Notes: generated by a model not told the origin, from the sequence alone. 64,000 nucleotides of DNA from Leptolyngbyaceae cyanobacterium (GCA_036703985.1 DATNQN010000128.1:1-64000); one strand, 5' to 3'; numbered from the stretch's first letter, positions 11,623 through 33,611 are shown. Translations and numbers: made by a program.

Positions 11623-11656
11623 AAATCCTTTATAGATATAGATCTATAAAGGATTT
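11623..11656. repeat. perfect 15-bp palindrome beside the integrase gene
   Basis: AAATCCTTTATAGAT at 11623-11637 is the exact reverse complement of 11642-11656, with a 4-base centre. It lies 27 bases past the integrase stop. It could be a recombinase core or attachment site, or a terminator for the integrase transcript on the minus strand. A matching copy at the right side of the block was searched for by eye and not found. Confidence 0.7.
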
Positions 11657-11682
11657 GTTGTTTCAATCCCTGATAGGTATTC

Positions 11683-12291
11683 TCAATCTTCCCACAGCCC
11701 CTCAAACCGATTAGGAGCCAGAGCGGTATATTTAGCCGTATTCTTAATATCCCGATGACCGAGCCAATCTTGAATTAACCGGGTATCTCTCCCAGCATTA
11801 GCCAACGCATAACCGCAGCTGTGCCGCAGCATATGAAAGTGAATCGGAATCGACAAACTAGCCTTTACACCCAAGCGCTCAACGCACTTACGAGCGCTAG
11901 CCTCATTGATGGGGACACCCTGAGAAGTTGTGAAGACCCACGGGGTATGAACATTTAGCGATCGCAATTTCTTGAGCGATCGCACCTCATCCTTCCCCAA
12001 CGGATGAGAACCCGAAATACTTCCCTTTAAGCGATTTACCCAGAATCTAGCTGATTGCAGGTCAATAGATGCCCATTTTGTATCCACAGCTTCGGATACT
12101 CTCAGCCCGTGCCGGAAAGCCAGCAATATCAGAGCATAATTACGACACTTGAGGAACTCACCAGAACTAGCAGACTTAGCAGTATTAAGTAATGTTTCGA
12201 TTTCTACGGCTGTAAGATATTCCCTCCCATCTCTCATTTGTTGGGAGGTTCTCTTAGCTTGTCTCATTCTTGCCGTAGAAGTAGCTAACAT
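11683..12291 (-). CDS. short tyrosine recombinase/integrase
   Basis: A 202-residue protein consisting almost only of a tyrosine recombinase catalytic domain, like the FimB/FimE class. Visible active-site residues: Arg in FRHGLRVSEA, the H-x-x-R of HMLRHSCGYALA, His in WLGHRDIKNT, and the Tyr nucleophile in KYTAL. It lacks the arm-binding and core-binding N-terminal domains of phage lambda-type integrases. It lies at the left end of the accessory block, pointing outward, so it probably mediates integration or inversion. Its partner sites are unknown. Confidence 0.9.
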   Translation of the reverse strand: MLATSTARMRQAKRTSQQMRDGREYLTAVEIETLLNTAKSASSGEFLKCRNYALILLAFRHGLRVSEAVDTKWASIDLQSARFWVNRLKGSISGSHPLGKDEVRSLKKLRSLNVHTPWVFTTSQGVPINEASARKCVERLGVKASLSIPIHFHMLRHSCGYALANAGRDTRLIQDWLGHRDIKNTAKYTALAPNRFEGLWED

Positions 12292-12503
12292 CTAACTGCT
12301 GTATCTCCTATTACTCCGTTACCTCTCCCCTGTGGTTGTATCATTTCCACGTATTTTTGATACTGTAGGTGAGTCCTTCCCTCACTGCGATCGCTAGGTG
12401 CTGTGGTCTTTAGGCCCTGCGATCTACCGCCCGGTTAGGGTGTCCTTACTCAGGGGACTCGGTATCGTGTCATATCGCCACGACGCTACAACCCTATTAT
12501 CGC
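12292..12503. other. GC-richer non-coding leader of the integrase gene
   Basis: About 210 bases between the integrase start and the stop of a large minus-strand gene. It contains small inverted repeats: GTATCA (12338-12343) with TGATAC (12358-12363), and GTGAG with CTCAC near 12370-12386. The composition differs from the AT-rich gaps elsewhere. It may hold the integrase promoter and regulatory or recombination sites. No tRNA was seen. Confidence 0.4.
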
Positions 12504-14468
12504 CTAAGTTTGCGGTCTTTGCACCTCCGTAATATTCGGGGTTGGTGGGTTCACTGCGTCCGGAGTCAGGATGCCATTATTGTTTGGCAGTTGTATTTCC
12601 CGCTTCCACTTGTCCCACTCTTTCTCAAATTGGCTGTTTCGCTGCTTATCCTTCTTCCGTTCGGCCTTGATAGCATCACCCGGCATTCCCGGCTGTCCCG
12701 TGGCAGGGTTAGTATCGACGGTTGAGTACACGGCCTTTCCTGCGATCTGCGCCCAGTAGCTAATATTCAGCAGTAGCCCAATCAATGTCCGATTGTCCTT
12801 AATATCGGTGACAATTAAGTCTTGCTCGGAAGACTTTAACATTTCCTCGGTGGATTGCCCTGCCCCTTGCCAACTCTCAAGGTTTGGGGTAAATGTCGTC
12901 TTAACCTTGATCGTCTCATTTCCCGTGATCGCTCCCGTGAGCTTGACCAATTCATTTAGAATGTGTAAAGCCTTTAGCGCCGCGTTACCCGCCTTGCTTG
13001 CTTCAGTTGCCGCCCTCAGCCCCCACTGCACGCCTTGATCGCTATCTTCAATAATTTTGAGATTGCCAGCGTACAGTTCTGCTATAGCGTGCTCGAGGTT
13101 CCAAAGTTTGACCGGTTTCTTTTTCCCATCGTCTGTAACTTCAAATTCTATAGGCCACTTGCCAGACCAGGCATTCCATTGCTTGAACCACCACTCTTGA
13201 AAGCCTGCCAGGTCGCTAATATCTATGACATCTCGATCGACCGCTTCGGCTAAAGAGTTTGGGTTCGGAATGAGAGAATCGGGAACCTTCGCCGGAAAAC
13301 GATGCAACCCTAAACGATAATATTCGGATGCAATCAACCCATTCATCACATCTATCAAATTATTAGCTTGAATCGTACCCGCCCGACCAAAACCACCTTG
13401 ATAAATTTTCTTACCCGCATTTTCAATATTCTGTTCTGGAGCAAAAGTATAAGTAGAAATAAAATTTTGTGCGCCGACAGCTTTGTGAATTTCTTTGACC
13501 AATTTTTCGAGATTATTTAATCTCTGTTGCTGTGCGCCAGAAATATCTCTGCAACTACAACCGCCCATACATGGTGTCTCCTCTGGTGGATCTGGCGTTG
13601 GTGGTGGATTGATTGGAATTGAATCGGCTATACCGTTTGATTGGCTTGGCGAAGAAGCCGAAGGTATGAAATTATAATTCCCGTTAATGAAATCAACATG
13701 AGGCCATACCCAATTTATTGATAAAGAAGTATTTGGCCATTGAGTTCGAGAATCCAAAGGATTCTCAATTCCGCCACCCTTTCTATAAAAAGATCCTTTT
13801 AAAAAAAAAGTGCCCCCACCGCCTGTGTTGTAAGGAATTCCCTGCCCGTTGCCAGAAAAAACATACTGAGCCTGATTCATTCCGCTCCAACCTGCAACTA
13901 TGTCAATAAAGGTTCCATCACCCGGCACGATAGAAAAGTGTTCTTCTGTTTCGTATCCGGATTTATGTTTCGTTTTGACAATTAAAGTGCCTGGAGTTAA
14001 AAATTCAACGTTTTGAGGATTCGGAGCATTAAGGAGTTCTTGTTCTAGACGTTGAATAGTGCTAGCGGGCGTATCTGGAGGAAATTGGATAGTTCCAGGT
14101 GGTAGACCGATTCGTTGACGGATTCGATCGATCGATTCGGCTCTTTCTTGCCGTTCCCTAATCCTTTCCTCTATCGCCTCCCTGTCCGGATCTCTCAATC
14201 CATCGCACTTTCCCCCATTAGCCCAAAACTGCAAAGGAGTTACGTAGATGAAATCACCCAACTCAGGGCTATAACAGGGGATGCCAGCCGTCTCAGAAAG
14301 TAGCGATGGTAAATCAAGTACACCCGCTTGACCGCCAGACCCTAACCGGATGGCAACATCAGCCGCACCCAATACTTCTAATAATGAACCCAATGCTTTT
14401 GTAACAGGGGAATTCATTAGATTAGAAAGCGCATTTGATGCTTGTCCGCAAATGTTAGGAAGTTGCAT
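12504..14468 (-). CDS. large unrecognised protein of the virion-like block
   Basis: A 654-residue protein, not recognised. The N-terminus (MQLPNICGQASNALSNLMNS) is followed by a small hydrophobic, Gly/Leu-rich part. An Arg/Glu helix (about 92-115, EERIRERQERAES) and a beta-rich section with an aromatic/Gly-rich stretch (GQGIPYNTGGGGTFF) come next. A Pro-rich linker with a Cys cluster (CMGGCSC, near 305) follows, then a helical C-terminal half. There is no Walker motif. It is six bases downstream of the 251-residue gene and is the last gene of that minus-strand operon. A structural or adhesin-like role is inference from neighbours. Confidence 0.65.
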   Translation of the reverse strand: MQLPNICGQASNALSNLMNSPVTKALGSLLEVLGAADVAIRLGSGGQAGVLDLPSLLSETAGIPCYSPELGDFIYVTPLQFWANGGKCDGLRDPDREAIEERIRERQERAESIDRIRQRIGLPPGTIQFPPDTPASTIQRLEQELLNAPNPQNVEFLTPGTLIVKTKHKSGYETEEHFSIVPGDGTFIDIVAGWSGMNQAQYVFSGNGQGIPYNTGGGGTFFLKGSFYRKGGGIENPLDSRTQWPNTSLSINWVWPHVDFINGNYNFIPSASSPSQSNGIADSIPINPPPTPDPPEETPCMGGCSCRDISGAQQQRLNNLEKLVKEIHKAVGAQNFISTYTFAPEQNIENAGKKIYQGGFGRAGTIQANNLIDVMNGLIASEYYRLGLHRFPAKVPDSLIPNPNSLAEAVDRDVIDISDLAGFQEWWFKQWNAWSGKWPIEFEVTDDGKKKPVKLWNLEHAIAELYAGNLKIIEDSDQGVQWGLRAATEASKAGNAALKALHILNELVKLTGAITGNETIKVKTTFTPNLESWQGAGQSTEEMLKSSEQDLIVTDIKDNRTLIGLLLNISYWAQIAGKAVYSTVDTNPATGQPGMPGDAIKAERKKDKQRNSQFEKEWDKWKREIQLPNNNGILTPDAVNPPTPNITEVQRPQT

Positions 14469-14473
14469 TGTTT

Positions 14474-15229
14474 TTATTTGCTAGTTACGGCTAGCGGACA
14501 AACTAAAGTTGATAATCGAGCCGCGTGAGTGCGAACAATTTCATCGGCTTGCTTTAGGATGTCGGGTGATTTTTTATAAGTCTGTTCGAGTGCTTCTATA
14601 AAAGCGTTATCGCCTTGGAAAGAAATATTAGCTAAATCATTTGCTTCGGTAAAAGTCATCCCTGCTTTGATGAAACTTTCCCTGATAACTTGTGGAGAGG
14701 TAGCTGTAGCCCTCAACCGAATCACAAAATTTTGGACTACATTTTCTGTTACTTCTTCTGCTATTTCTTTGGTTACTTGATTGTTAACGGCAATCTCTTT
14801 TGCCAATTCAGCTAAAGTTTCTAATTGATTGACATTTTGTTGAGCTTTTGCCCACACTCGAACTGCTGCTGCTCCGTAGTTTCGAGCAAATTCCCGCAAG
14901 GTATCGCCTTCGGGGACGATTTCACCCGCAGGCACTTCATCCCCTTGCAAAACAGATTGGCCTGCACGTACTTGCATGGGGTTAGATATGCCGGCTGTGG
15001 CGGGAACCCAAACAGTTACGGGTTGAACTGATAGCTGTAGAACAGGGTTGCTTTGCGTTTGGATTACAGTTTGACTGACGCTAACTCTAGTTGACACTCG
15101 CACTCTTACCGGGACGCTCTCTCCTACTCCCACGGTTACCGGAACGCAATCGTTTTGCGTACTAGGTGACATCCCATTAAATAATGGGTTCACCTCGAAA
15201 ACCATACCCCCATGATTCATCCAAGCCAT
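14474..15229 (-). CDS. hypothetical protein, virion-like block
   Basis: A 251-residue protein. The first half is Val/Ser/Pro-rich and predicted beta (VPVRVRVSTRVSVSQTVIQT). The second half is helical (LETLAELAKEIAVNNQVTKE and following). It has no signal peptide, membrane helix or catalytic motif. Beta-then-helix layouts occur in phage structural proteins, but no family was recognised. It is part of a tight minus-strand operon running 16455 to 12504. Confidence 0.6.
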   Translation of the reverse strand: MAWMNHGGMVFEVNPLFNGMSPSTQNDCVPVTVGVGESVPVRVRVSTRVSVSQTVIQTQSNPVLQLSVQPVTVWVPATAGISNPMQVRAGQSVLQGDEVPAGEIVPEGDTLREFARNYGAAAVRVWAKAQQNVNQLETLAELAKEIAVNNQVTKEIAEEVTENVVQNFVIRLRATATSPQVIRESFIKAGMTFTEANDLANISFQGDNAFIEALEQTYKKSPDILKQADEIVRTHAARLSTLVCPLAVTSK

Positions 15230-15238
15230 TTTTAAGCC

Positions 15239-15610
15239 TCAATCAATATAACGAAATGCCCAAGGTTGCGTGGGGTCAATTTTATTTCCCACGACTTCCG
15301 GAGAATATGCCGTTCTAAACAGGCGATGCGCTGGCAACAGGGCACCGATCGGCCAATATTGACGCCACATCATTCGACCTCGATAGCGGGTAACGCGATG
15401 CCAGTTTGCTTCGTTGACCGGGGCCGATCGCCTAAGTCCCCTCAACGGCAAATCGAAATCTGGTAATCCGTACTGGGGAAAACTCATCCTCGTATACCAG
15501 TGAGGTAGGGTTCCCATGATGTTCCAGGGGTGATTTGGCAGCAAGCGATCGCAAACTGGGTTTGCCAGCGTGTCGTTGTTGATCCAGCTTTTCCGAAAAT
15601 TGATCGTCAT
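15239..15610 (-). CDS. hypothetical protein, virion-like block
   Basis: A 123-residue basic, Trp/Arg-rich protein (for example WHRVTRYRGRMMWRQYW). Its start overlaps the stop of the upstream gene by four bases, indicating translational coupling. Composition suggests nucleic acid or membrane interaction, but there is no recognised domain. Confidence 0.6.
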   Translation of the reverse strand: MTINFRKSWINNDTLANPVCDRLLPNHPWNIMGTLPHWYTRMSFPQYGLPDFDLPLRGLRRSAPVNEANWHRVTRYRGRMMWRQYWPIGALLPAHRLFRTAYSPEVVGNKIDPTQPWAFRYID

Positions 15611-16455
15611 ATCGATCGAACCCCTTCTCTAACAGATACTTGGGTAGGTTGAGCGCTGTATCCTTTCACCGCACCGCGATAAGGCATATTCGCATCTATT
15701 TGGTGGACGCTTCCAAAAGGTAATATCGGCACTCCAGGGCCAGTATCGTTGTCATATTTAATCCATAAAATATAATCTGCAACATTCGCCCCTGGCGCTG
15801 GATTCGAGTAGTTGATTATTGTTGCATTCTCGCGGGAAATGTTGGCAGCTAAAATAGTGGTTTCTTGTTGAACCGTGAATATTTGCGAAGGCGAATACAA
15901 AACTGTAAAAGCACCCAATTTGGGCGACTTTCTTTTGATAGCGCTTCCCCGGATCGAGATGTAGTCATTCCCTTGTAAGGGGGTTTTCATCTTCAGGTAC
16001 AGCACTTCATACGCATCAGTTTTGGGTGATTTTCCCGTTGAGATGGTATTGTTCGTTCCTGCGAAAAATACCATCAAGCTGATGATATAAAAAGGTGGCT
16101 GATTAAATAGGGGGATTTCGCAGATAAATTGCTCTGGTTGCGCCTCGTATCCCGAATAAAATTGTATAGTTTTGTAATCGGAAAGTAGGGCAACTCGATC
16201 CATTACTTTTTTTACTTCTTCGGCTGTTGCACTTTCAGGTAGTGCCGGTAAACTAGTCAGCCCGATCGAAGGTAAAGAAATAGTTGCTTCGAGGTAATCG
16301 ATAAAGCTTGCGTACTCCAGCCCCATATTATCTTCTGATGCTGGATGCCATCCGGGTGAATAGATAGGGATTAAATCCGTGCCGTTCGATGGTCGAACCT
16401 CAAGCAAAAGGCTTTCTACATAAGGCTCTTGGAGCTTATCTTGATTACCGATCAT
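15607..16455 (-). CDS. hypothetical protein, virion-like block
   Basis: A 282-residue protein with a beta-rich composition (VFFAGTNNTISTG, NDYISIRGSAIKRK) and a C-terminal segment ending VSVREGVRSI. No catalytic motif. It is the first gene of a minus-strand operon whose promoter must lie in the 37 bases separating it from a divergent plus-strand gene. A virion surface protein would fit but is not shown. Confidence 0.6.
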   Translation of the reverse strand: MIGNQDKLQEPYVESLLLEVRPSNGTDLIPIYSPGWHPASEDNMGLEYASFIDYLEATISLPSIGLTSLPALPESATAEEVKKVMDRVALLSDYKTIQFYSGYEAQPEQFICEIPLFNQPPFYIISLMVFFAGTNNTISTGKSPKTDAYEVLYLKMKTPLQGNDYISIRGSAIKRKSPKLGAFTVLYSPSQIFTVQQETTILAANISRENATIINYSNPAPGANVADYILWIKYDNDTGPGVPILPFGSVHQIDANMPYRGAVKGYSAQPTQVSVREGVRSI

Positions 16456-16492
16456 TAATAGTACAATTGTTCTATAGTTGACTTTATTGTAT

Positions 16493-16852
16493 ATGCTTAC
16501 GGCTCAAGATGTTCTGATTAATGGCAGTGTAGACGCTTCAACATTTGAAATAATTAATAGCAAGCTTTATTTAAATGTAGGCGCTTTGATCGGGCAGGGG
16601 GTCAATAGTTTGACCAATCCTTGCATAGACGATCTATATTTAAAGCTTCATTTGGCATTATGGCGATCGCAAACTGCCTACAATGCTTCAAAACCAGCAG
16701 GACAGAGGATTAATTCCTGGTTTGAGCCGTCGAGCGGTAGCGCACAGTACTACAGCAACCTTACCCCGGCTGGATTCTACGCGGCGTGGAGTTGCCAAAG
16801 TAATTTTTTAGTACCCTCTAATGTCGATAGCGTCGTGGCGGTATTGCAGTAA
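16493..16852 (+). CDS. hypothetical protein coupled to 550-residue protein
   Basis: A 119-residue protein starting at the ATG at 16493 (MLTAQDVLINGSVDASTFEI); a TTG at 16478 is possible. The stop overlaps the next start by one base (TAATG), so the two are co-translated. No recognised domain. The mid part, LYLKLHLALWRSQTAYNASK, is helical. This two-gene plus-strand island lies inside a long minus-strand block. Confidence 0.6.
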   Translation: MLTAQDVLINGSVDASTFEIINSKLYLNVGALIGQGVNSLTNPCIDDLYLKLHLALWRSQTAYNASKPAGQRINSWFEPSSGSAQYYSNLTPAGFYAAWSCQSNFLVPSNVDSVVAVLQ

Positions 16853-18504
16853 TGGCTAACCCTTTTTTTCAAACCATTACCATATTGCCGACGCAACTCC
16901 CTAGCACGAAGCTGCGTCAGGTTGCCACGGGAGGCCAGATACTCGGATCGCTCCTTCCAATTCCGAACCCGGTCAACAACGGTATCCGCAAAATCGATGT
17001 CGATCAGGTAGATACGGTCACGGCGTCCAATCCCGTGACTGGTGCGGTACAAAATTTTGTAGGCAAGGTAGTCAATACTCTCAAGAAGTTTTTCGGTTTT
17101 GCATGGCCTGCTATAGTTCGGATTCTCCCGCGATCGTTTTCTGAGTTGTGGTCAACTATTGTTACGGTCGGTTTCACTCTTTGGACTTTCGACTGGAACC
17201 AGACGGATAACGCCCTCAGAGAGCAGATCAAACAAAATAACAATCAGATTCTCAATGCAGCAGCGGGTGCTTTGGGTACTTACTTGGGTTGGGGTGCGGT
17301 GCGCTTGGTGCAGATGGGAGTGTCGAAACTGATCAAGACAGACGGACGCGATCGCAGTTTGGATATCAGAGTGCCGATAGTTTCCCCTCGCGTCGCTGCG
17401 GCATTAGCTGAAGAAGGAAACGACGAAGTGAGAGGGCAGATGATAGCTCTGCTCACTCAGATCAAGCAAGCGCAAGTTAAAAATGCTTTCCTTGGTTTCA
17501 TGCTGACGGCTAGGCAGATGGAGTTGTTTGGCATGAAATCCATCCAACCTGCTAAAGCTTCAGATAATTTTTCTCAAAAAACCCAACCTAAGCCAGATAG
17601 CTTCGCACAAAGATGGGAAGATTTTGTTAACAAGCTTCCCGAACGCTGGCAACAACCTTTAGAAAATCTCACAGAAAACTTCGTAGAAGCAGTAATTGAA
17701 GCAGGCTACATCTTAGGCGCTGAAGCGGATGCAGCGTATATGCTAGCCAAGTCTGCGGTAAGGGATGCACGAGGGCCTGAAAAAACGATCGTCGTACAAC
17801 CCGATAAGCGACTGGAGCGCGACAAATATATCGTGACGGGGCCGCAAGAATTCGTACAAGAGGAAGTGCAGCGCATTCAACACCAGCATCAATTGATGGA
17901 GAAAAAAGACGTAGGAATCATCATCGGAGAACGGCTAGAAGATTCGCTACAGAAAAAGCCGATGGTGCGGCAATTAAAAATCAGGTGGAACACCGTAAAA
18001 GAACCGCCGTTAGTTCATCAAGACGGGCAAGTTGGAAAGTTTTCGGAAGTTAATATTCCCAAAGTCCGCGTCGGATTATCGTGGCGAGAAGTCAAGGTGG
18101 CTGCGGATGAATTTTTGAGGGGAAATCCCTACTGGCAAATTACTTACAAATGTTGGGAACGAGATTCTTATATCGGTGACTTGGTAGTGTCTGGCAATAA
18201 CGAGGAAGAGTGCGAAAGAAGGGCGAAAAAGTTAAAGCTGCTGATGCCTTCCGGGGTTGATTTGAGGGGAGGGACTCCCTTAAAAAGAAGTCCTAATTCT
18301 GCTCAGTTTCGCTATGCGGCTAAACAATTTTTTCCCCACGACTGTACTTTGACTGTAGTGAAAAATTCCCTAGATGACGCGGAAAGACGCGATCGGCGGG
18401 GCAAGTATCGAATGGATAATCCCGAAGATCGGGTTTTCGATACGGTGATTAAGGTGCGGCTTTATGGAGAACAGGAGCCTGATGGTTTTACTGGGTTTCG
18501 CTAA
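16852..18504 (+). CDS. large hypothetical protein with hydrophobic segment
   Basis: A 550-residue protein. A hydrophobic region at about 85-150 (FGFAWPAIVRILP and WSTIVTVGFTLWTFDWN) could enter a membrane. A helical middle follows (VRGQMIALLTQIKQAQVKNA; EAVIEAGYILGAEADAAYML). The C-terminal 170 residues look like a compact alpha/beta domain (IPKVRVGLSWREVKVAADEF... YWQITYKCWERDSYIGDLVV). It has no P-loop. It overlaps the convergent minus-strand gene by four bases at the stops. Function unknown; a membrane-associated virion or injection component is possible. Confidence 0.65.
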   Translation: MANPFFQTITILPTQLPSTKLRQVATGGQILGSLLPIPNPVNNGIRKIDVDQVDTVTASNPVTGAVQNFVGKVVNTLKKFFGFAWPAIVRILPRSFSELWSTIVTVGFTLWTFDWNQTDNALREQIKQNNNQILNAAAGALGTYLGWGAVRLVQMGVSKLIKTDGRDRSLDIRVPIVSPRVAAALAEEGNDEVRGQMIALLTQIKQAQVKNAFLGFMLTARQMELFGMKSIQPAKASDNFSQKTQPKPDSFAQRWEDFVNKLPERWQQPLENLTENFVEAVIEAGYILGAEADAAYMLAKSAVRDARGPEKTIVVQPDKRLERDKYIVTGPQEFVQEEVQRIQHQHQLMEKKDVGIIIGERLEDSLQKKPMVRQLKIRWNTVKEPPLVHQDGQVGKFSEVNIPKVRVGLSWREVKVAADEFLRGNPYWQITYKCWERDSYIGDLVVSGNNEEECERRAKKLKLLMPSGVDLRGGTPLKRSPNSAQFRYAAKQFFPHDCTLTVVKNSLDDAERRDRRGKYRMDNPEDRVFDTVIKVRLYGEQEPDGFTGFR

Positions 18505-18704
18505 GGCCAAATCTGACCGTGAGGAAATAAGTATCCCGCGATCGGCATATAATTCGGTGGATAAGATTGGGTCGAGATTTTCGGCTTACCCCAAAAAACT
18601 CGCACGTCCCAAGTATCCCATTTTGTATTTGGAGCTTCGATCGGCGTAGATAGGGCTGTTGCCACTTTAGTTTTAATGTTTATATCGCCGTTGCTAACAA
18701 TCAT
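18501..18704 (-). CDS. small hypothetical protein
   Basis: A 67-residue protein, start chosen at the ATG at 18704 because it overlaps the upstream stop in the ATGA arrangement used throughout this operon. It begins MIVSNGDINIKTKVATALST, a beta-type sequence. No family recognised. Confidence 0.55.
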   Translation of the reverse strand: MIVSNGDINIKTKVATALSTPIEAPNTKWDTWDVRVFWGKPKISTQSYPPNYMPIAGYLFPHGQIWP

Positions 18705-21222: not shown

Positions 21223-21374
21223 AAGAATCACAATAATTCTTTACTCAATTCTGCTGCATCTACTCATTATTTCAGTGGCAAATCTAAAAAATTCATAAAG
21301 TCTTGATTTTAGGCAAGGTACATCACCAAAATATACTGTCCGACGTTTACGATGTGTCTCACCCCTTATGGGTT

Positions 21375-25149: not shown

Positions 25150-25154
25150 ATTGA

Positions 25155-25472: not shown

Positions 25473-25560
25473 CTGCTACATTTTCTTAGCCGCATAATTA
25501 GGTAGCCGAAATCTATCTCACTTAGTACGTAGTGGTGATTTGACTTACAAAACGGGCATT

Positions 25561-25758: not shown

Positions 25759-25763
25759 TGGTG

Positions 25764-26087: not shown

Positions 26088-26117
26088 GGTTGTTGTAGTG
26101 TTGGTAATAGATAAGTT

Positions 26118-26366
26118 TTAGTTATTGAGATTTTGGGCGATCGCGTTTTTCTCACCCAGGTTTTCCTTATCGATCGGATTGACAGCCCCTCCCACTAGTT
26201 CGATATCGCCGTAGGGGTGGCCTGTCTCTGTATCGAACTGCTGTTCGTACTCTTCATTGCAGATTTCACAGAGGTATTCTCTGACTGCTTCATCCACGTC
26301 AATTCCGGTATAAAGCAGCCGGTTATTACAGGTTGGGCATCTGTGGTGAGAGTAGGTTGCTTTCAT
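26118..26366 (-). CDS. zinc-ribbon protein
   Basis: An 82-residue protein. The start is at ATG 26366, which overlaps the upstream stop (ATGA). Two Cys pairs, RCPTCNNRLLYTG and EYLCEICNEEYEQ, spaced about 23 residues apart, form a zinc ribbon. Such proteins act in nucleic-acid binding or as small regulators. Target unknown. Confidence 0.65.
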   Translation of the reverse strand: MKATYSHHRCPTCNNRLLYTGIDVDEAVREYLCEICNEEYEQQFDTETGHPYGDIELVGGAVNPIDKENLGEKNAIAQNLNN

Positions 26367-26569
26367 TTTTCCCACGCTTGAACGGTTTGTAATTTTTCTT
26401 CTACTTCTGCGATCGCATCTTTGGCGTTATCAACGTGGGCGGCTACTTTTTCTAGATCGACATTCTCTCGACGCCAGACTTCCCAGAAAAGATCGTCGCT
26501 GGGGCCGTAGAATAGATGCTCAACCGCTGCCTCAAGATCTAGCATTGCTTGCTTAGGGTCTGATGTCAT
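26363..26569 (-). CDS. small helical protein, paralogue of the upstream gene
   Basis: A 68-residue acidic helical protein starting at ATG 26569 (ATGA overlap). Its last 20 residues, KDAIAEVEEKLQTVQAWEK, almost match the end of the upstream 102-residue protein, and the DNA (26370-26431 against 26578-26638) is also nearly identical. It arose by tandem duplication of a C-terminal module. Confidence 0.6.
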   Translation of the reverse strand: MTSDPKQAMLDLEAAVEHLFYGPSDDLFWEVWRRENVDLEKVAAHVDNAKDAIAEVEEKLQTVQAWEK

Positions 26570-26874
26570 GACTTCCCCCACGCTTGGACGGTTTGTAATT
26601 TCTCCTCTACTTCTGCGATCGCATCTTTGACCTCATCAAAAGCAGTTTTCGCAACCTTCACATCAAATAGGATTTGGTTATTCACTGCCCAGTCCAGTTC
26701 GTCTGCTTTGGTGTAAAGCTTTGTGACCGCATTCTGGAAGTCTAGAATTCCTGCTTGCTGATCTGCGATTTCGCATCCAATTTCACACCAACACGGGAAA
26801 ACGTTACCACCATCACTTGTGTAACCTGTCCCATCACAGTCAGTGCAAGTATTGCGCTCCTCATCTGGGTTCAC
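26566..26874 (-). CDS. zinc-cluster protein with duplicated C-terminus
   Basis: A 102-residue protein. N-terminal CTDCDGTGYTSDGGNVFPCWC is a DnaJ-like Cys cluster (C-x-x-C-x-G-x-G, then C-x-C). The C-terminal helix ends KDAIAEVEEKLQTVQAWGK, shared with the downstream protein. It overlaps the flanking genes by four bases each. Its partner is unknown; chaperone activity should not be assumed. Confidence 0.65.
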   Translation of the reverse strand: MNPDEERNTCTDCDGTGYTSDGGNVFPCWCEIGCEIADQQAGILDFQNAVTKLYTKADELDWAVNNQILFDVKVAKTAFDEVKDAIAEVEEKLQTVQAWGKS

Positions 26875-27116
26875 TTAAAGTCCTCCTCAGTCCATACTTT
26901 GATACGACTCTTCCGAATCTTGACCTGCTCAACTTTTTCCAATGCGTCCTCTACTTGACGTAGCGAGATTTTGACGCAACCGAGCCAGTCTTTCATGAGT
27001 TCTACGTTCAAAATGTCTGAGTCTGTTGGGCAAATATCTTTTACGTCAACTTTTAGTTGGGATAGCGCTCTGTCTAGAGCGAAATAAGTTCGTTTTTCCT
27101 CTTGTTCTATATCCAT
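26871..27116 (-). CDS. small hypothetical protein, first gene of minus-strand operon
   Basis: An 81-residue acidic and helical protein (EEKRTYFALDRALSQLKVDV, then LRQVEDALEKVEQVKIRKSR). It opens the operon that runs to 24300. The upstream terminator at 27143-27176 means the operon must have its own promoter in the short gap 27117-27142 or be fed by read-through. Confidence 0.6.
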   Translation of the reverse strand: MDIEQEEKRTYFALDRALSQLKVDVKDICPTDSDILNVELMKDWLGCVKISLRQVEDALEKVEQVKIRKSRIKVWTEEDFK

Positions 27117-27176: not shown

Positions 27177-27355
27177 TACTGATTTTCTTCTTGCAGCCTT
27201 TCAAGGACAATAGCCTCCAGGCGCTGCATATCTTGTAAAACTTGACTGCGATGCTCCTGATTTTCCTCCAACCTTGCCCTTAGCCTCTCAGCGTGGGCAT
27301 CCACATAAGCCAGGTGAGCCTGCTGCAATCGCCTCAACTGGCCAAGAATTCCCCC
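27176..27355 (-). CDS. coiled-coil segment, probable -1 frame continuation of the RHH gene
   Basis: In the frame after 27355 (minus strand) lies a strongly helical, polar coiled coil: GQLRRLQQAHLAYVDAHAER, then LEENQEHRSQVLQDMQRLEA, and a stop at 27176 directly before a perfect terminator. This frame is open upstream, but the N-terminal reading (MDNTHDQNEKQQPS...) is the shadow of the RHH coding sequence. The coiled coil most likely follows the RHH domain after a -1 shift at the run of five G at 27351-27355, giving about 125 residues in total. It may instead be a decayed gene or a sequencing error. Confidence 0.5.
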   Translation of the reverse strand, partial: GGILGQLRRLQQAHLAYVDAHAERLRARLEENQEHRSQVLQDMQRLEAIVLERLQEENQ

Positions 27356-27570
27356 AATATCTGATTCTTCGTGGCTGGTTCCGCATTGCTCATCGACCTG
27401 GCCATCTTTTCGATCACGTCGCTTTTGCTCGTGTTCATCCGAGAAGCTAGATCGTCCAATATCGCCAGCGTTGTGGGAGTGAGTGTTAGGTTCACCCTCT
27501 CTTTTCTCTCTCCGTACCTTGTAGGAGGGCTGTTGTTTTTCGTTTTGGTCATGTGTGTTGTCCATCTCAC
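27334..27570 (-). CDS. ribbon-helix-helix DNA-binding regulator
   Basis: A 78-residue frame with GTG start at 27570; ATG at 27552 (MTKTKNNSPP) is more likely. The RHH core ERVNLTLTPTTLAILDDLAS, then RMNTSKSDVIEKMARSM, is clear. The frame stops at 27334, in the middle of a sequence that continues as a coiled coil in the -1 frame. The gene is divergent from the plus-strand genes across the operator region at 27643-27687, so it is the likely regulator there. Confidence 0.7.
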   Translation of the reverse strand: MRWTTHMTKTKNNSPPTRYGERKERVNLTLTPTTLAILDDLASRMNTSKSDVIEKMARSMSNAEPATKNQILGEFLAS

Positions 27571-27687: not shown

Positions 27688-27845
27688 TCAAGTGTGTTTT
27701 AGGGATTCACAGCTAGTAAGGGGGATTTGCCTATTTATCAGCGTTCATTGATATGGGATTTCCAAATACCTTGATGAGTTAACCAACAACAGAGTTGCAC
27801 AGAGTCTTCGGGGTAGGGTTCCTCACCTCCCCCACTTTCTTAAAA

Positions 27846-28091
27846 ATGACAAACCTTACTTCAGACCTTACTTTTCCTTACTGCAATCTTTTGGGCTACC
27901 ACGCATACCATTACCGAAAACACAAAAGCCTTTGGCATCTTCAATGGTTAGACATTTACTGGTATGGATGTCCGAGAAAAGCTTTCAAAGGTATCCCATC
28001 TAGACACTTACCGAGAATAAAAAAGAACGCCACAAAACGAGCGCTTATCGCTCTCTGGCAACACTCTTATCCAAACGGTTTAAATTGGTGA
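27846..28091 (+). CDS. small hypothetical protein
   Basis: An 81-residue protein starting at ATG 27846 (MTNLTSDLTFPYCNLLGYHA); an upstream TTG at 27795 would add 17 residues. Rich in Trp, Tyr and His (KSLWHLQWLDIYWYGCPRKA). Basic C-terminal half. First gene behind the palindromic promoter. Not recognised. Confidence 0.55.
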   Translation: MTNLTSDLTFPYCNLLGYHAYHYRKHKSLWHLQWLDIYWYGCPRKAFKGIPSRHLPRIKKNATKRALIALWQHSYPNGLNW

Positions 28092-28098
28092 ACCTACC

Positions 28099-29574
28099 AT
28101 GCCAACACTACAACAATTAAAATTGCCCCAACTCAGAGCATTAGCCGGAACCCTCGACCTCACCAAAGATAACGTCGCCGGCGATGCTAGAAAACCACAA
28201 TCTTGGATCGATGCAATAACTTTTCACTTGCAAAAAGAAGCCTTTACTGCTGAAGAATTTAAAGAAGAAATCAAGGGGTGGATATTCAATCGCTACGAAC
28301 TAGAAACCCTTCGCCAACACTGGGGCGATTACTGTTTTAGAGACGAACTGTACTGCACAATTAAAAATCATCTTCGGCAATTCTCCCGCTACATAGAAAG
28401 CCGATTTGATGATGGTTGGCAACTATTTCTTGGTTGGCTTGATGCGAAATTTGCCTTTACCAGCGGCACTCTTTTTGACTTGAATAATTACATTACCCCG
28501 CCCAAACCGAAGAACACTTGGGCTGATGCCGCTGACGTAGATGACGACGGTGATGACGAACTGCTGCCACTGCGATCGCCCAGCCGTGCAGTTCCATCAC
28601 CTCAACCAGAAGTTCCATCACTTCCAACTCCCGAACCAGAAGTTCCATCACTTCCCACTGAATACGATCGCGAGTTTGAACTTCTGCCACTACGCCCTAA
28701 GAAAGAACCAGAAGTTCCATTACCTGAAACCGATAACGATTGCTCCTGGGATCTGGACACTTTCCTACCCGTTGATGTTGCGGCTTCCCGCTTCAGCGTA
28801 GGTGATAAAGTTTGCGTTTTCCACGGAAAGCCCGCTTACCGTGCAGGGACGATTATCGATTTTAGGGCCTGCAACCGCACTCCCAATATGCCGCTAGTTC
28901 GCTGCGATGATGGCATAGAGCGCTTCCTTCCCCCCCAGATGATGCAGTTAATTCCAGAGGGGCAGATGTGTTTGTTCCCGCTGGATGAATTTGATGTTGC
29001 GATCGCAGAAATGGAGGCCGAGTTCGAGCAAGATGACGATCGCGACATCAAGATCGAGTTTTTACCGCCACCAGAACCCGATCCAGACCTCCTCGATGAC
29101 GACGATGAGGATGAGTGCTGGTTGATTTCTGACTACCTCAATGCTGATGAGGCGGTGGAAGAACTGCCCGAATGCGATCGCGCCGGAGAAGATTTCCCGG
29201 TGGATGATGATCGGTTATCGGTCGCGATTTGCGATCGAGATATCGAACTTCCACCGGGATACCCAGAACCGGGAACTGTTGACGAGGAAGAGTACTGGTG
29301 GATCGAACAGGGGGACGAGGAAGTTACCGAATGCGATCGCGACGAGGAAAGTAACCCTGCTTCGGCTCAGTTTTGGCTCACTACTTACCAAGGTTGGGTA
29401 GATGATTTTGACACCAATGTTGCTGTTTGTAACGAGTTCATGGAGGAATTCTCATACTTCACTCGTGAATTCTCATATTTGGCAAATTGCGATCGCACCC
29501 AATCCCCCCATCTCCCCATCTCCCCATCTCCCCATCCTCTCCTAACTCCATCCGCTTCACGCCCACCACCGTGA
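28099..29574 (+). CDS. acidic SAP-like protein with internal SH3-like segment
   Basis: A 491-residue protein. The N-terminus LQQLKLPQLRALAGTLDLT fits a SAP-type helix pair. Residues about 165-215 hold short Pro repeats (PEPEVPSLPTE). A Tudor/SH3-like piece follows (FSVGDKVCVFHGKPAYRAGT). The second half is extremely acidic (DDDDEDE, DEEEYWW). The last 30 residues translate a C-rich repeat (SPHLPISPSPHP) and may be an accidental extension. It may bind DNA or mimic it; the acidic region could act as a DNA mimic, but that is inference. Confidence 0.65.
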   Translation: MPTLQQLKLPQLRALAGTLDLTKDNVAGDARKPQSWIDAITFHLQKEAFTAEEFKEEIKGWIFNRYELETLRQHWGDYCFRDELYCTIKNHLRQFSRYIESRFDDGWQLFLGWLDAKFAFTSGTLFDLNNYITPPKPKNTWADAADVDDDGDDELLPLRSPSRAVPSPQPEVPSLPTPEPEVPSLPTEYDREFELLPLRPKKEPEVPLPETDNDCSWDLDTFLPVDVAASRFSVGDKVCVFHGKPAYRAGTIIDFRACNRTPNMPLVRCDDGIERFLPPQMMQLIPEGQMCLFPLDEFDVAIAEMEAEFEQDDDRDIKIEFLPPPEPDPDLLDDDDEDECWLISDYLNADEAVEELPECDRAGEDFPVDDDRLSVAICDRDIELPPGYPEPGTVDEEEYWWIEQGDEEVTECDRDEESNPASAQFWLTTYQGWVDDFDTNVAVCNEFMEEFSYFTREFSYLANCDRTQSPHLPISPSPHPLLTPSASRPPP

Positions 29575-29681
29575 AGCGCTCCCGATGAATGGCTCTCTTG
29601 ATGTGCTGGGCATGGGCAACCATGCCTTCCTTCCCTCTCCAACTTGCAACGGGAACCAAAAATGATTTTCAGGCATTAGCG

Positions 29682-30581
29682 ATGGATTTGACCGCAGACA
29701 TATTGAGCGAACTAGCCCCAAAAATTCAGACGCCAATTGAAGCGTTGAGCGAATTTTTTCACAACCTGGACTGCACCACTTTAGGGGAAAATTTCCCCTG
29801 GTTGGATAGTCAGATTCAAATCAATAATTTGGGATACATTTTCGTCGGTGCGTGCTTGCAGCGAATTCGACACCATAATCTATACCGGTTCGATTACGGT
29901 GACTTCAAAGAATACTGTAGGCACGCACTAGGCAGAAGCTACAACTATTGTCTGCGGTTGATTCAAGCCGCTCAAACCGCCTATTTATTAATTCAAGAAA
30001 AGTTCGATCGCCTGCCAACTTGCGAATCGCAAATTCGCCCGATTGTCCAAGTTTTACCAAAAGATAAGTTCGGAAATATTGACCTTACTGCTATCAACCC
30101 AGAGGCACCATCAGCATCTTATTTGTGGGAAGAAGTCCTCAAAAACGCTGACGAGAAAAATAACGGTCTTATTACCGCCGATTTAGTGCAGAAAACAGTT
30201 AACGCCGAATTGCAACTAGAAACCAAACAACAACAAGAAAGGAAGGTGAAAATAGCTATTGCCAACAAATATCGACAACGCCTATCCCGGATAGCACTTG
30301 AGGAGGGAAAATCGGAAGCTGAAATTTTAGAAGAACTGATCGATCGCAGGTATCTGGAAATGGATTTTGATGAATATCCAGAAACCGATTCATCAGAAAA
30401 CGAACCCGCAGCTTCCGAATCCGATGACGACATCCCCTCCGATCCGCTCGACTGGGAAAACGATTTAGACCTTTTGGTCAGTCATTTCGAGCGACGAATC
30501 AACCCACCCAAATCAGAACAAATGTTAGAAACAACTGCCAAAAATCCATCGCGATCGCCTCCCACCGTATCGCGATGGTAG
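29682..30581 (+). CDS. phage/plasmid-type protein with winged-helix-like motif
   Basis: A 299-residue protein, start chosen at ATG 29682 (MDLTADILSELAPKIQTP); the frame is open to 29589 but that part reads as junk. The central motif YGDFKEYCRHALGRSYNYCL, then RLIQAAQTAYLLI, resembles the Y-x-x-F-x-x-Y-C-x-x-x-x-G-x-S-x-x-x-x-x-R-L-I pattern found in small phage and plasmid proteins linked with replication or regulation. A C-terminal helical region is followed by an acidic tail. A weak hairpin terminator follows. Confidence 0.6.
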   Translation: MDLTADILSELAPKIQTPIEALSEFFHNLDCTTLGENFPWLDSQIQINNLGYIFVGACLQRIRHHNLYRFDYGDFKEYCRHALGRSYNYCLRLIQAAQTAYLLIQEKFDRLPTCESQIRPIVQVLPKDKFGNIDLTAINPEAPSASYLWEEVLKNADEKNNGLITADLVQKTVNAELQLETKQQQERKVKIAIANKYRQRLSRIALEEGKSEAEILEELIDRRYLEMDFDEYPETDSSENEPAASESDDDIPSDPLDWENDLDLLVSHFERRINPPKSEQMLETTAKNPSRSPPTVSRW

Positions 30582-30601
30582 AGCAAGGAGTAAATGGTCT
30601 T

Positions 30602-30616
30602 GGGGCATTTTGCCCC
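30602..30616 (+). terminator. hairpin after the 299-residue protein
   Basis: GGGGCA and TGCCCC with a three-base loop, followed by a T-rich stretch (ttccttct). It is short and weak but placed 20 bases after the stop. Confidence 0.4.
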
Positions 30617-30659
30617 TTCCTTCTATTAGCTGTAAAGCACCTATCAGTTAATAACAATC

Positions 30660-30905
30660 ATGGATGAAAAAGTATTAGTCAAACAAGAACGAAAAGCTAT
30701 TATCCAAGGTTTAGAAACTTTAGGATATCAAGTATTACTTCGGCCTAAATCGCTTTTAATTTGCGGTGGGTCGGAAATTTACACGCTACGGCGATCGAGC
30801 TTCACTAGGGCGTGGTCTATCGTTCCCACACCTGACACGATCGAATTTAAAACCATCTTCCATCGTATTTGTTGGGCGTTGTTTTACGTGAGGTGGAAAA
30901 CCTAA
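30660..30905 (+). CDS. hypothetical protein coupled to GIY-YIG gene
   Basis: An 81-residue basic protein (MDEKVLVKQERKAIIQGLET, then LRRSSFTRAWSIVPTPDTIE). Its stop overlaps the start of the GIY-YIG gene by one base (TAATG). No domain recognised. Confidence 0.6.
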   Translation: MDEKVLVKQERKAIIQGLETLGYQVLLRPKSLLICGGSEIYTLRRSSFTRAWSIVPTPDTIEFKTIFHRICWALFYVRWKT

Positions 30906-31171
30906 TGTATGTCTACCTTTTGCACTTTAGCCGTCCGATCAATCCAAACCGTCCAGCACAACATTATCTCGGTAGTACGATCGACATCGACGAACGACTA
31001 AGACAGCACCGAAAAGGACAAGGTTCTCGCCTGTGCGAAGTAGCAAGAGAACGCGGTATAAGTTTCCAATTGGCAGAACTTTTTATCGACGCTGACTACC
31101 GACAATTAGAACGAACTTTCAAACGCAGACGCAATCACCCCAAACTTTGCCCCATATGCTCCAAGCAGTAA
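30905..31171 (+). CDS. GIY-YIG nuclease-like protein
   Basis: An 88-residue protein, start at ATG 30905 (the upstream frame is overlapped by the previous gene). MYVYLLHF, then HYLGSTIDIDERLRQHRKGQ, corresponds to the GIY and YIG strands with the first Arg, and Glu in YRQLERTFKRRRN fits the metal-binding Glu. The fold is complete but minimal, without a DNA-binding domain. It is in an operon with four small genes and could be a nicking enzyme of the element. Confidence 0.75.
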   Translation: MYVYLLHFSRPINPNRPAQHYLGSTIDIDERLRQHRKGQGSRLCEVARERGISFQLAELFIDADYRQLERTFKRRRNHPKLCPICSKQ

Positions 31172-31452
31172 TTATTCACAAAGAACAGGACTATATTCTC
31201 ATCCCCTGGACTAGCATCGTTCGTACCGAATACCGTCAAACACCTTATTCTGTTGGTACGAAAATTAAAATCAACACACCCGAATACTTCAAAATCACGG
31301 CATTGGGTTCGGACGTGCAAATTTTAGAATGTCTTGTGTTCGGTGGAGAATCTGCCAATATTCTCAATAAAGCGTTTCGACGACTAGGTGACGCTTATCC
31401 AGTTGTTGATGTTTACGGATCTGATTTGATTGATAATTTTTTAATTCGATGA
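31156..31452 (+). CDS. small hypothetical protein
   Basis: A 98-residue protein, start at ATG 31156. It has an alpha/beta pattern (MLQAVIIHKEQDYILIPWTS, then FKITALGSDVQILECLVFGG). Its start lies inside the GIY-YIG gene and its stop overlaps the next start (ATGA). Not recognised. Confidence 0.55.
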   Translation: MLQAVIIHKEQDYILIPWTSIVRTEYRQTPYSVGTKIKINTPEYFKITALGSDVQILECLVFGGESANILNKAFRRLGDAYPVVDVYGSDLIDNFLIR

Positions 31453-31709
31453 TTAAACCTTACATTCTGCAAAATATTTATACCGCCAATTACTATCAGC
31501 AATTGAATTTTGTTAGCTCGTTGCTCAAATCAATCGTAGACGAGGAACTGATTTATACTGGCGAATCAACACAATTAATGTTGAAACTCGACACCGTTAA
31601 CCCAGACGCCGATCCGGACATGGACGAACTCAACCAGCTAACGGATAACGAGAAACTGGAATTAGCAATTCACGTTTTAAGTAACGTTATAGCCCACATA
31701 CCAAGATGA
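31449..31709 (+). CDS. small acidic hypothetical protein
   Basis: An 86-residue helical, acidic protein (PDADPDMDELNQLTDNEKLE). It is coupled to its neighbours by ATGA overlaps on both sides. Not recognised. Confidence 0.55.
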   Translation: MIKPYILQNIYTANYYQQLNFVSSLLKSIVDEELIYTGESTQLMLKLDTVNPDADPDMDELNQLTDNEKLELAIHVLSNVIAHIPR

Positions 31710-32050
31710 ACAAAGCTTTTTTCAAAACGCAATGTGGCCCCTGGAAACCTTACGCCCCTTTCTTCAAAGACGGCGTTCCCATCTATGGAACGTTTGGCAT
31801 CTTAGCGGGGCCTGATAACATTCCTGCCTACGAAGTCCGCGTAAATGAATTGAACTCCCAGCAAGTAGGCGTTTTATTAAAGCGTTGGTTGTGGCAAAAC
31901 GAAGACAACCCAACTATTAGTTTAGAAATGGCAATGGATAGCCTATTAGAACGTTGCACGATTCCTAAACATTGGTTTTCTCACGTTGCAGTGGTGGGAG
32001 ATATAACTATTCGATCGGAAGATATTACTGATATCAAAAAACTTTCGTGA
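31706..32050 (+). CDS. small hypothetical protein, last of operon
   Basis: A 114-residue protein with a Trp/Pro-rich N-terminus (CGPWKPYAPFFKDGVPIYGT) and helical C-terminal part. It is the last gene of the coupled plus-strand operon. The GC-rich spacer that follows separates it from the DEDD recombinase. Not recognised. Confidence 0.55.
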   Translation: MNKAFFKTQCGPWKPYAPFFKDGVPIYGTFGILAGPDNIPAYEVRVNELNSQQVGVLLKRWLWQNEDNPTISLEMAMDSLLERCTIPKHWFSHVAVVGDITIRSEDITDIKKLS

Positions 32051-32327
32051 TTACCGCCTGAGGAGCCGGGTTCACCCACCCGGCGAAACTCTTCTCAAGA
32101 GTCGCGGAACCGGGTTCACTTTCCCCCCGCAGTTAGTACCGCTCCCTGTAACGAAATGGGTTAATAACCCCATCATATTCGTGGATCGAGTGCTAATTTC
32201 AGTGGATGCGGCAGGCTTCCAACCCCTGCCGCGTCATACCCAATTGACCCCTAAACAGAAATGGCTGACTGGTAGTTTGCCCGGAGTGGTTCGTGGGTTT
32301 TTTGGGTGCCCTTTTCATTTTATCCAT
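32051..32327 (+). ncRNA. candidate bridge RNA region of the IS110-type recombinase
   Basis: About 277 bases without convincing coding potential upstream of the recombinase start at 32328. Strong hairpins are visible: GCCGGGT with ACCCGGC (32065-32084), ACTCTT with AAGAGT (32088-32102), GGGTTA with TAACCC (32158-32170), and GCGGCAGG with CCTGCCGC around a 9-base loop (32208-32232). IS110-family elements make a structured bridge RNA from just this kind of long leader, with separate loops for target and donor. Whether the loops match flanking DNA was not tested. Confidence 0.5.
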
Positions 32328-33611
32328 ATGCACGTTCAAACAATTATCGGGATGGACATCAGCGCCTACTGGGTTGATGTAGTGGTTTTGCGCGAGAAAT
32401 TATCTATTGCACCGCGCGATTTTTTTGAATCAAAAAAATTTAAGGATTGCCATCATCGAATTGAATGCAATGCAGACGGCATAAACTTCATCAAATCCAT
32501 GTCGCCTGCAATGATAGTTCTTGAGACGACTGGCTCGTATTCGAGATTTTGGATTAACAGTTTTGAAGCTAATGGGCTGGCATATCTGATTGCGAATCAA
32601 ACCATGCTTCGCGATACCCGAAAAGCATTTGCCGGATCTGATAATAAATCTGATGCTTTCGATGCCTTGCTGCTAGCGCACCTTTACTTCATCTATTACC
32701 AAGACTGTTACGATCGTCGCTACTGGGTTAAAGACCGACACCCAACTATAAAACTGATACGGCGTCTGCTCTTAGATCTGAAGTCCATTGTCAGGAAGCG
32801 CACGGCAGATATCAACTATACAAAACAGCGGTTGGCTTCTGAATACCCTGCTAAAGCAGACGTGCATAGTCGTCGGCCAAACGGACAGCTAGACCCAGAC
32901 ATTCCGCCAGCGTTTTGGGCATGGGTTGCCAATTGGCAATCTGACAAGTGGAATATGACACCCAGAGTCGTCGCCCGATTTGAAAACCAGTACCGTAATG
33001 CGATCGAAAAAGGAGAGGGAACTGGATTTTCAGACCTAACTCGCCAATACGCCAAACTGATTTGCTCGCACCATGTATCAGAAGCTATGGTTGAACGCGA
33101 ACTTTTACCGCTGGTGAGAAATGAGATGTTTGGTGAGTACCACAAAATCTTTGACAGTTTCGCTTTTGGCGATCGCGAACGAGCCTGGTTACTGGTGAGA
33201 ATTTATCCTTTTGCTGATTACCTGGCATTACCCAGAAACCGAGCGCTTCGCAGATTTCGGCAAGCGTTAGGCGTAGGTAAAATTGAGCGATCGTCCGGGA
33301 AGTCTTCAGGTCGTGCTGCAAAAAATACAGGATCGTCTGAGCTTCGATCGATTTTATGGACTTACGTCAACTATCGGATTGAGAAAGGACTAGAAAAATC
33401 TTTCTCATCAGAAGGTTCGCCGCAAACAAATGTAAGAGATAGTTGCCCGGACACACCCGTGTGTAAAGAACTTCGTGCCTATTTCATCGATCGAGCTTTT
33501 ACTAATAATCGAAAAATTAAGGGTAGGGCGCTATCAGACGCTCGAAATGCAACTTGTCGGAAATTGGCAGAATTAGTCTTTAGAGAAATGTGGCGAAGTC
33601 GGGTGAAGTGA
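32328..33611 (+). CDS. IS110-type DEDD recombinase/transposase
   Basis: A 427-residue protein, start chosen at ATG 32328 because IS110 proteins place the first Asp about ten residues in ([12 protein letters not shown], Asp10); the upstream 49-residue extension lies in a structured leader. The other acidic residues are Glu66 in IVLETTGSY and Asp109 and Asp112 in NKSDAFDA. The C-terminal domain has [20 protein letters not shown], the Ser-Gly region of Transposase_20. A longer helical insertion separates the domains. It stops 52 bases before hemH. It could be a transposase or a Piv-like invertase acting inside the block. Confidence 0.88.

What the first reader, a model, noticed from the sequence alone, without database searches (positions are those of the whole stretch)
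11623..33611. Twenty-two-kilobase virion-like element with no recognisable capsid, terminase or ATPase
Between two recombinases lie about 35 mostly unrecognised genes. Virion-like features are visible: a decoration-like 112-residue protein, a holin-like protein overlapping an SAGC-type lytic enzyme, several tightly coupled beta-rich proteins, two ribbon-helix-helix regulators, and a GIY-YIG protein. Yet no P-loop protein, terminase, portal, protease or replication gene was seen. This fits a satellite that borrows a helper's capsid, a decayed prophage, or a divergent virus. Established: satellites often have an integrase and regulators but miss structural parts. The rest is inference.
Basis: partly seen in the sequence, partly recalled or inferred. 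Interest (0 to 1): 0.75.

Follow-up and report, generated by a model that had tools for sequence, protein, structure and literature searches.

The report
Unrecognised cyanobacterial provirus-like element family
A 22,000-base stretch in this cyanobacterium is an inserted, virus-like element belonging to a family found in about one in seven sampled cyanobacterial species, whose core virion-like proteins match nothing in the phage and viral collections searched and which lacks the usual capsid, portal and DNA-packaging genes.

Summary
The stretch is a 22.06-kb insertion (about 11559-33617) between a methyltransferase gene and hemH, which lie 80-105 bp apart in 11 of 12 relatives. It has a tyrosine integrase, a holin-like/lysin pair and about 35 mostly unknown genes. 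No P-loop NTPase is found in any frame.

It is no orphan or decayed remnant. Eight of its genes are recovered by profiles built without its own clade. P550 occurs in 58 of 390 sampled cyanobacterial genomes, but not in INPHARED phages or IMG/VR scans; two circular cyanobacterial 'plasmids' of 20.8 kb are members. Twelve relatives have exact borders (14.4-25.4 kb) formed by repeats of tRNA-gene ends. One is a perfect tandem of 15,374-bp units; one assembles as an 18.3-kb circle. Core genes are under purifying selection. The lysin slot holds at least seven unrelated enzymes, and fibre-type genes vary. Thirteen of 16 host genomes lack the terminase and portal families tested.

Best reading: a provirus of an undescribed temperate, probably tailless, virus lineage. 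P282 models as a jelly-roll coat-like protein (moderate confidence). P209 models confidently with no PDB match. Packaging is unexplained: 8 of 33 relatives carry an FtsK/HerA-like ATPase, the window copy does not.

The parts
11559..11565 (.). attL core TAAAATC (left border of the insertion)
   Evidence: homology to empty sites of relatives ends at 11574; repeat also at 33617
11683..12291 (-). short tyrosine integrase (202 aa)
   Evidence: PF00589 1e-38
12504..14468 (-). P654, core virion-like protein with conserved C-terminal half
   Evidence: profile without window clade 1.2e-41; in 32 of 34 elements compared
14474..15229 (-). P251, clade-specific structural-operon protein
   Evidence: homologues in L006 and L007 in the same order
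15239..15610 (-). P123, clade-specific structural-operon protein
15607..16455 (-). P282, predicted jelly-roll coat-like N-domain plus C-terminal beta domain
   Evidence: AF2 pLDDT 70.5; Foldseek top hits virus coat proteins; VIA Z about 6-6.7; profile 9e-20
16478..16852 (+). P124, small core protein
   Evidence: profile 8.2e-14
16852..18504 (+). P550, most conserved family marker; many homologues carry one or two weak hydrophobic segments
   Evidence: profile 1.4e-57; 58 of 390 genomes; hydrophobicity scan
18701..19498 (-). P265, variable protein, probable receptor-binding
   Evidence: only in G001 and Toly among the compared elements; function inferred
19504..19920 (-). P138, variable receptor-module protein
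   Evidence: homologue only in G001
19924..20262 (-). 112-aa decoration-like beta protein
   Evidence: read from sequence; positional and pattern resemblance to short P282-family members in relatives
20259..20882 (-). lysin
   Evidence: PHROG_3000 9.5e-38, endolysin PHROG_33083 1.3e-12
20845..21231 (-). holin-like protein, one TM segment plus coiled coil
   Evidence: TM 27-45; overlaps lysin
21375..21611 (-). RHH-like protein in the late block
   Evidence: weak PHROG_582 match; homologue in L007
21613..21960 (-). P115, core beta-type small protein
   Evidence: profile 1.5e-12
21947..22189 (-). P80, core small protein
   Evidence: profile 5.2e-23
22193..22822 (-). P209, core two-repeat basic protein, candidate major virion or genome-binding protein
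   Evidence: profile 2e-25; homologue model pLDDT 86, no PDB match
22860..23186 (-). P108, small protein next to P209
   Evidence: homologue in L007, 62.9% identity
23384..23593 (+). P69, core small basic protein
   Evidence: profile 5.8e-18
23632..24294 (+). secreted TPR protein, probable cargo
   Evidence: TPR_1 1.5e-12
24300..27116 (-). nine small early/cargo genes, function unknown
   Evidence: read from sequence; weak DUF6788 in the first
27334..27570 (-). ribbon-helix-helix regulator (overlapping ORF 27176-27565 is an alternative)
   Evidence: RHH_1 4e-4
27795..31171 (+). p98, p491, p330 (RHH-like segment), p81 and GIY-YIG protein; possible regulation/maintenance module
   Evidence: no replication domain found
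31147..32050 (+). three small unknown genes
   Evidence: no match for the two scanned
32181..33611 (+). IS110-type transposase beside the right border, possibly a later insertion
   Evidence: single copy in genome
33617..33623 (.). attR core TAAAATC (right border)

Best explanation
The stretch is an integrated provirus (or a close derivative of one) of a widespread, apparently undescribed lineage of temperate cyanobacterial viruses with circular genomes of about 14-25 kb. Shown: a tyrosine integrase sits beside one border, the relatives' empty site is intact, relatives are bounded by tRNA-gene-end repeats, and some relatives exist as circles. Inferred: the integrase recombines a circular form with the chromosome. 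After induction the late block makes a particle. P282 is a jelly-roll coat or penton-like part, P209 the major coat or genome-binding part, P654 and P550 a spike/membrane or DNA-delivery complex, and P265/P138/P112 the receptor module. The holin-like protein and lysin then release it. Many relatives replicate with a VapE/DUF3854 primase-helicase or another large early protein; the window copy has lost or replaced this. Its packaging uses no self-encoded P-loop motor, so either assembly needs none or a motor is supplied in trans.
For: 22-kb insertion against an intact site in relatives. Eight core genes recovered by profiles lacking the window's clade; about 13 genes collinear with G002. P550 in 58 of 390 cyanobacterial genomes. 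Relatives: tRNA-end repeats of 37-93 bp in 12 elements, one of them a perfect 15,374-bp tandem with three att copies. Circular replicons: 20,757 bp, 20,803 bp, and an 18.3-kb contig with a 141-nt terminal repeat. Purifying selection. Lysin slot filled by PHROG_3000, M15, Amidase_3, Tlde1-like, GH19, CHAP, phage lysozyme. Fibre/spike domains Peptidase_S74, Gly_rich_2, Phage_tail_C and tail-fibre PHROGs among the variable genes. P282 model resembles viral jelly-roll coats. No relaxase or T4SS match.
Against: No particle, induction or encapsidated DNA has been shown. No packaging ATPase or replication gene in the window copy. The P282 fold match is middling (pLDDT 70.5, Z 6-6.7, low TM). None of these proteins turned up in IMG/VR scans, which is unexpected for an abundant virus, although virus finders that rely on known markers would miss it (inference). 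Two of 23 P654 homologues have coiled-coil matches to tape-measure families.
Confidence: 0.72

Rival explanations
1. A phage satellite (PICI/P4-like, or one that supplies its own tail, spikes and lysins) packaged into a helper phage's head.
For: Size, tRNA target, tyrosine integrase and a VapE-like primase-helicase in many relatives are satellite-like. No terminase, portal or capsid gene. Weak tape-measure matches in 2 of 23 P654 homologues.
Against: 13 of 16 host genomes lack both Terminase_6N and Phage_portal matches. The family carries its own holin-like/lysin pair, diverse fibre domains and a conserved, selected structural block. A lytic helper and other terminase families were not excluded.
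Confidence: 0.15
2. A more specific version of the best explanation: a tailless jelly-roll virus related to known membrane-containing phages (tectivirus/corticovirus or Sphaerolipoviridae/Matsushitaviridae type), the FtsK/HerA-like ATPase of 8 of 33 relatives being its packaging motor.
For: P282 Foldseek hits include PRD1 P3, STIV MCP, a MELD-virus penton and phage GC1 MCP. Membrane-anchored P-loop ATPases in 8 elements.
Against: No sequence match to those phages. A second jelly roll is not established. The ATPase is absent from complete elements such as G222 and G065 and from the window. RNA-virus coats score as well as PRD1.
Confidence: 0.35
3. A non-viral integrative or plasmid element whose 'virion' genes make a surface or secretion structure, with lysins used for competition.
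For: Two relatives are filed as plasmids. No recognised capsid.
Against: No relaxase or conjugation gene recognised. Holin/lysin turnover and swapping of fibre modules are typical of phages (established knowledge).
Confidence: 0.1
4. A decayed prophage.
For: The window copy lacks a replication gene and carries an IS110-type gene at one end.
Against: Intact collinear core ORFs and low dN/dS in relatives; the missing hallmarks are missing family-wide.
Confidence: 0.03

Closest known systems
Tolypothrix sp. PCC 7601 plasmid unnamed14 (NZ_CP064893.1) and Allocoleopsis PCC 7113 pMIC7113.08 (NC_019743.1)
   Same: Circular 20.8-kb replicons with P550, P654, P282 and an integrase; members of this family filed as plasmids.
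   Different: Annotated almost only as hypothetical proteins, not as viruses. Extrachromosomal; the Tolypothrix one has an FtsK/HerA-like ATPase.
PRD1/PM2-type tailless phages (Tectiliviricetes)
   Same: Small DNA genomes of similar size; the P282 model resembles PRD1 P3.
   Different: [quoted passage not shown] no packaging ATPase in the window copy; no sequence similarity found.
PICI/P4 and other phage satellites (including tycheposons of Prochlorococcus, named in PMC10187409)
   Same: About 15 kb, tyrosine integrase, tRNA sites, VapE-like protein in many relatives.
   Different: Own lysis and host-recognition genes; large conserved virion-like block; no resident tailed helper detected in most hosts.
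Microcystis aeruginosa NIES-298 phage-like plasmid P1 (PMC12510456)
   Same: A cyanobacterial plasmid with phage-like genes.
   Different: Its reported genes hit known Microcystis phages; homology to this family was not tested here.

Membership tests
Caudoviricetes (tailed phages) | Terminase large subunit (P-loop ATPase) | tested here: not met
   No P-loop in six frames of 11575-33616; no Pfam/PHROG terminase match in the window genes scanned, no Pfam terminase match in 112 proteins of 15 elements
Caudoviricetes (tailed phages) | Portal and HK97-fold capsid | tested here: inconclusive
   No sequence-profile match; fold not excluded for proteins that were not modelled
Caudoviricetes (tailed phages) | Tape measure and tail tube | tested here: inconclusive
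   Coiled-coil tape-measure matches in 2 of 23 P654 homologues, none for the window protein
[quoted passage not shown]
   P282 model has one jelly-roll-like domain and a smaller beta domain; PRD1 P3 E 1.2e-4 but low TM
Tectiliviricetes-like tailless viruses | FtsK/HerA-type packaging ATPase | tested here: not met
   Absent from the window; a candidate is present in 8 of 33 relatives, role unknown
Two single-jelly-roll viruses (Sphaerolipoviridae, Matsushitaviridae) | Two single jelly-roll capsid proteins | tested here: inconclusive
   P282 jelly-roll-like; P209 model has a different strand/helix order; P115 and others not modelled
PICI/P4-type satellites | Integrase, about 15 kb, VapE-like primase | tested here: inconclusive
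   Met in many relatives; VapE absent in the window
PICI/P4-type satellites | Dependence on a helper phage | tested here: inconclusive
   13 of 16 hosts lack Terminase_6N and Phage_portal matches; lytic helpers not testable
Integrative conjugative/mobilizable element | Relaxase or type IV secretion genes | tested here: not met
   No Pfam match in the window genes scanned or in 112 proteins of the family
The P550/P654 element family described here | P550, P654, P282, P209, P80, P69, P115, P124 | tested here: met
   All eight found by profiles excluding the window clade
Virus (any) | Genome enclosed in a particle it encodes | not testable with these tools
   Needs induction, particle purification and proteomics

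The most novel reading that the evidence does not exclude
A virus lineage of cyanobacteria unrelated to known realms in its main coat protein: P209, a duplicated alpha/beta unit without a match among solved structures, forms or lines the particle, and the genome is enclosed without a self-encoded packaging ATPase.
Probability: 0.25. Interest if true: 0.93.

Novelty: new variant of a known kind. Interest (0 to 1): 0.82.

Why it matters
If right, about one in seven cyanobacterial species carries proviruses that virus finders based on known marker genes do not see, and two sequenced 'plasmids' of culture-collection strains (Tolypothrix PCC 7601, Allocoleopsis PCC 7113) are probably viral genomes. 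That makes the question testable at once in culturable strains. It would add a virus lineage for an ecologically central phylum and possibly a new coat-protein fold and a way of enclosing a 15-22-kb genome without a standard terminase.

Tried and rejected
Profiles of the four core families against PDB sequences gave only chance matches. IMG/VR scans with P282, P550 (three queries) and P209 found nothing; alignments A2 and A4 had no stretch conserved enough to scan. P550 and P654 against phage records: none. A search for CRISPR spacers against the core gave short matches, none of those checked next to a CRISPR-like repeat array. PDB fold search with P209: best Foldseek E 1.3 and VIA Z 2.1, so no fold assigned; this does not prove a new fold. 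An early motif scan missed P-loops of the GKG type; the later profile search corrected the count of ATPase-bearing relatives. The automatic clustering joined P209 and P550 because one relative (L015) encodes them as one protein; they are separate families. Literature searches found no description of this family in the open-access library; subscription papers and preprints were not covered.

Full report
WHAT IS THERE. The window lies in contig C128 of a 7.7-Mb cyanobacterial genome. Between a methyltransferase gene (10870-11493) and hemH (33634-34827) sit 22 kb that relatives lack. In 11 of 12 relatives these two genes are neighbours with a gap of 80-105 bp; in G013 they fall on different contigs. 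Comparison with those empty sites ends the left homology at 11574 and starts the right one at 33617, with TAAAATC repeated at 11559-11565 and 33617-33623. It carries a short tyrosine integrase at the left end, an IS110-type gene at the right end and a late-type block between 12.5 and 23.6 kb. Six-frame scanning finds no P-loop NTPase, and Pfam and PHROGs name almost nothing except the integrase, lysin, RHH, TPR and GIY-YIG proteins.

A FAMILY, NOT AN ORPHAN. P550 relatives occur in 58 of 390 cyanobacterial genomes and 40 of 160 genera in an even class sample. A scan of 84,980 bacterial and archaeal species genomes found 11 loci, all cyanobacterial; that scan uses short conserved peptides and is not exhaustive. 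I compared 34 loci. The recurrent set is P654, P550, P282, P209, P80, P69, P124 and P115, with an integrase and, in 16 elements, a VapE/DUF3854-type protein (family call confirmed by Pfam for one of them). Each of the eight is recovered in the window by a profile built without the window, G001 and G002 sequences, with E-values from 1e-12 to 1e-57. Window and G002 share about 13 genes in the same order. The order is circularly permuted at the integrase, as expected for circles opened at different att positions.

MOBILITY. Exact borders come from relatives. Direct repeats of 37-93 bp covering a tRNA gene end flank 12 elements of 14.4 to 25.4 kb, at tRNA-Leu, Phe, Glu, Cys, Met, Lys, Thr and Val genes; in G400 the repeat is only 16 bp. 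G222 holds two tandem copies of a 15,374-bp unit with three att copies of about 89 bp. The Oscillatoriaceae MAG contig (G055) has a 141-nt terminal repeat and so closes into an 18.3-kb circle. Two complete circular plasmid records of 20,757 and 20,803 bp belong to the family. Core genes in related pairs have dN/dS mostly between 0.04 and 0.3, so they are maintained. Two copies in G016 share an identical P550/P124 core but have diverged large proteins (31% and 67% identity), as expected for recombining viruses with fast-changing host-recognition genes (inference).

WHY VIRUS-LIKE. (i) Next to a holin-like membrane protein sits a cell-wall enzyme, and across elements this slot holds unrelated enzymes: PHROG_3000 in the window, peptidase M15, Amidase_3, a Tlde1-like domain, GH19 with a peptidoglycan-binding domain, CHAP, and phage lysozyme. 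(ii) Variable genes contain Peptidase_S74, Gly_rich_2, Phage_tail_C and tail-fibre-type PHROG matches (in one search only the best 25 of 54 PHROG families were shown). Such domains may also sit on non-tailed virions, so they do not by themselves prove a tail. (iii) No relaxase or secretion system was found. (iv) Thirteen of 16 hosts have neither a Terminase_6N nor a Phage_portal match, which argues against a resident tailed helper. Other terminase families were not tested.

STRUCTURE. The window's P282 was modelled with mean pLDDT 70.5. Foldseek ranks nodavirus coat first (2.2e-6), then PRD1 P3 (1.2e-4), carnation mottle virus and others. In the viral library the named hits are mostly coat proteins, with a MELD-virus penton and the GC1 major capsid protein. 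VIA Z values for the N-terminal domain are only 6-6.7, a level that can reflect a common arrangement, and TM-scores are low because the two domains are placed uncertainly. I read it as a probable jelly-roll coat or penton-like protein, not as proof. P209 was modelled from the Microcoleus homologue L012 with pLDDT 86 and pTM 0.78: two copies of a beta-beta-alpha-beta-beta-beta-alpha-beta unit. No PDB chain matched well (Foldseek best E 1.3; VIA best Z 2.1). That makes it the most interesting single protein, but a missing match does not prove a new fold.

PACKAGING. The window, G222, G065 and several other complete elements encode no recognisable DNA-packaging motor. Eight of 33 elements have a large P-loop protein with N-terminal hydrophobic segments, in three related groups; Pfam matches the Tolypothrix one weakly to FtsK/HerA. 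These may be packaging or DNA-transfer motors. Either they are optional, or the elements without them rely on something else. This is the main open point.

ALTERNATIVES. A helper-dependent satellite remains possible, especially because VapE-like proteins and tRNA integration are satellite-like and because two P654 homologues show coiled-coil matches to tape-measure families. A plain plasmid or secretion island fits the lysis genes and fibre turnover less well. Decay is contradicted by the family-wide pattern.

KNOWN OR NEW. No phage record, IMG/VR contig or open-access paper that I found describes the family. The Microcystis NIES-298 phage-like plasmid (PMC12510456) is a different case by its description, since its genes hit known Microcystis phages; homology to it was not tested. 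I file the element as a new variant of a known kind (temperate virus/provirus), with a real chance that the coat protein and packaging mode are new.

Noticed in passing
Toly (L005), G046, G107, L014, G219, G400, L013, L021: FtsK/HerA-like P-loop ATPases with hydrophobic N-termini in three related groups, in some elements beside small membrane proteins.
   Followed up: partly
L015 9095-11452: P209 and P550 are encoded as one 785-aa protein, suggesting that they work together.
   Followed up: no
G222 C1, about 599.6-630.5 kb (L054-L056): Two tandem copies of a 15,374-bp element with three tRNA-Leu att copies.
   Followed up: yes
window 32181-33611: Single-copy IS110-type transposase ending 6 bp before the right att core; whether it is an insertion or part of the element is unclear.
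   Followed up: partly
window 26344-26639: Near-duplicate of about 90 bp gives consecutive small proteins with the same C-terminus AIAEVEEKLQTVQAW.
   Followed up: no
NC_019743.1 7897-9829 (L129): P550 is split between two annotated CDS in this plasmid, perhaps a frameshift.
   Followed up: no
G016, two loci about 2.07 Mb apart (L078-L081): Two related elements share an identical P550/P124 core but diverged flanking genes, a sign of recombination.
   Followed up: partly
window 23632-24294; L007 7434-8054 and 19891 onwards: Secreted TPR protein with relatives both inside and outside the G002 element; possible host-derived cargo.
   Followed up: no
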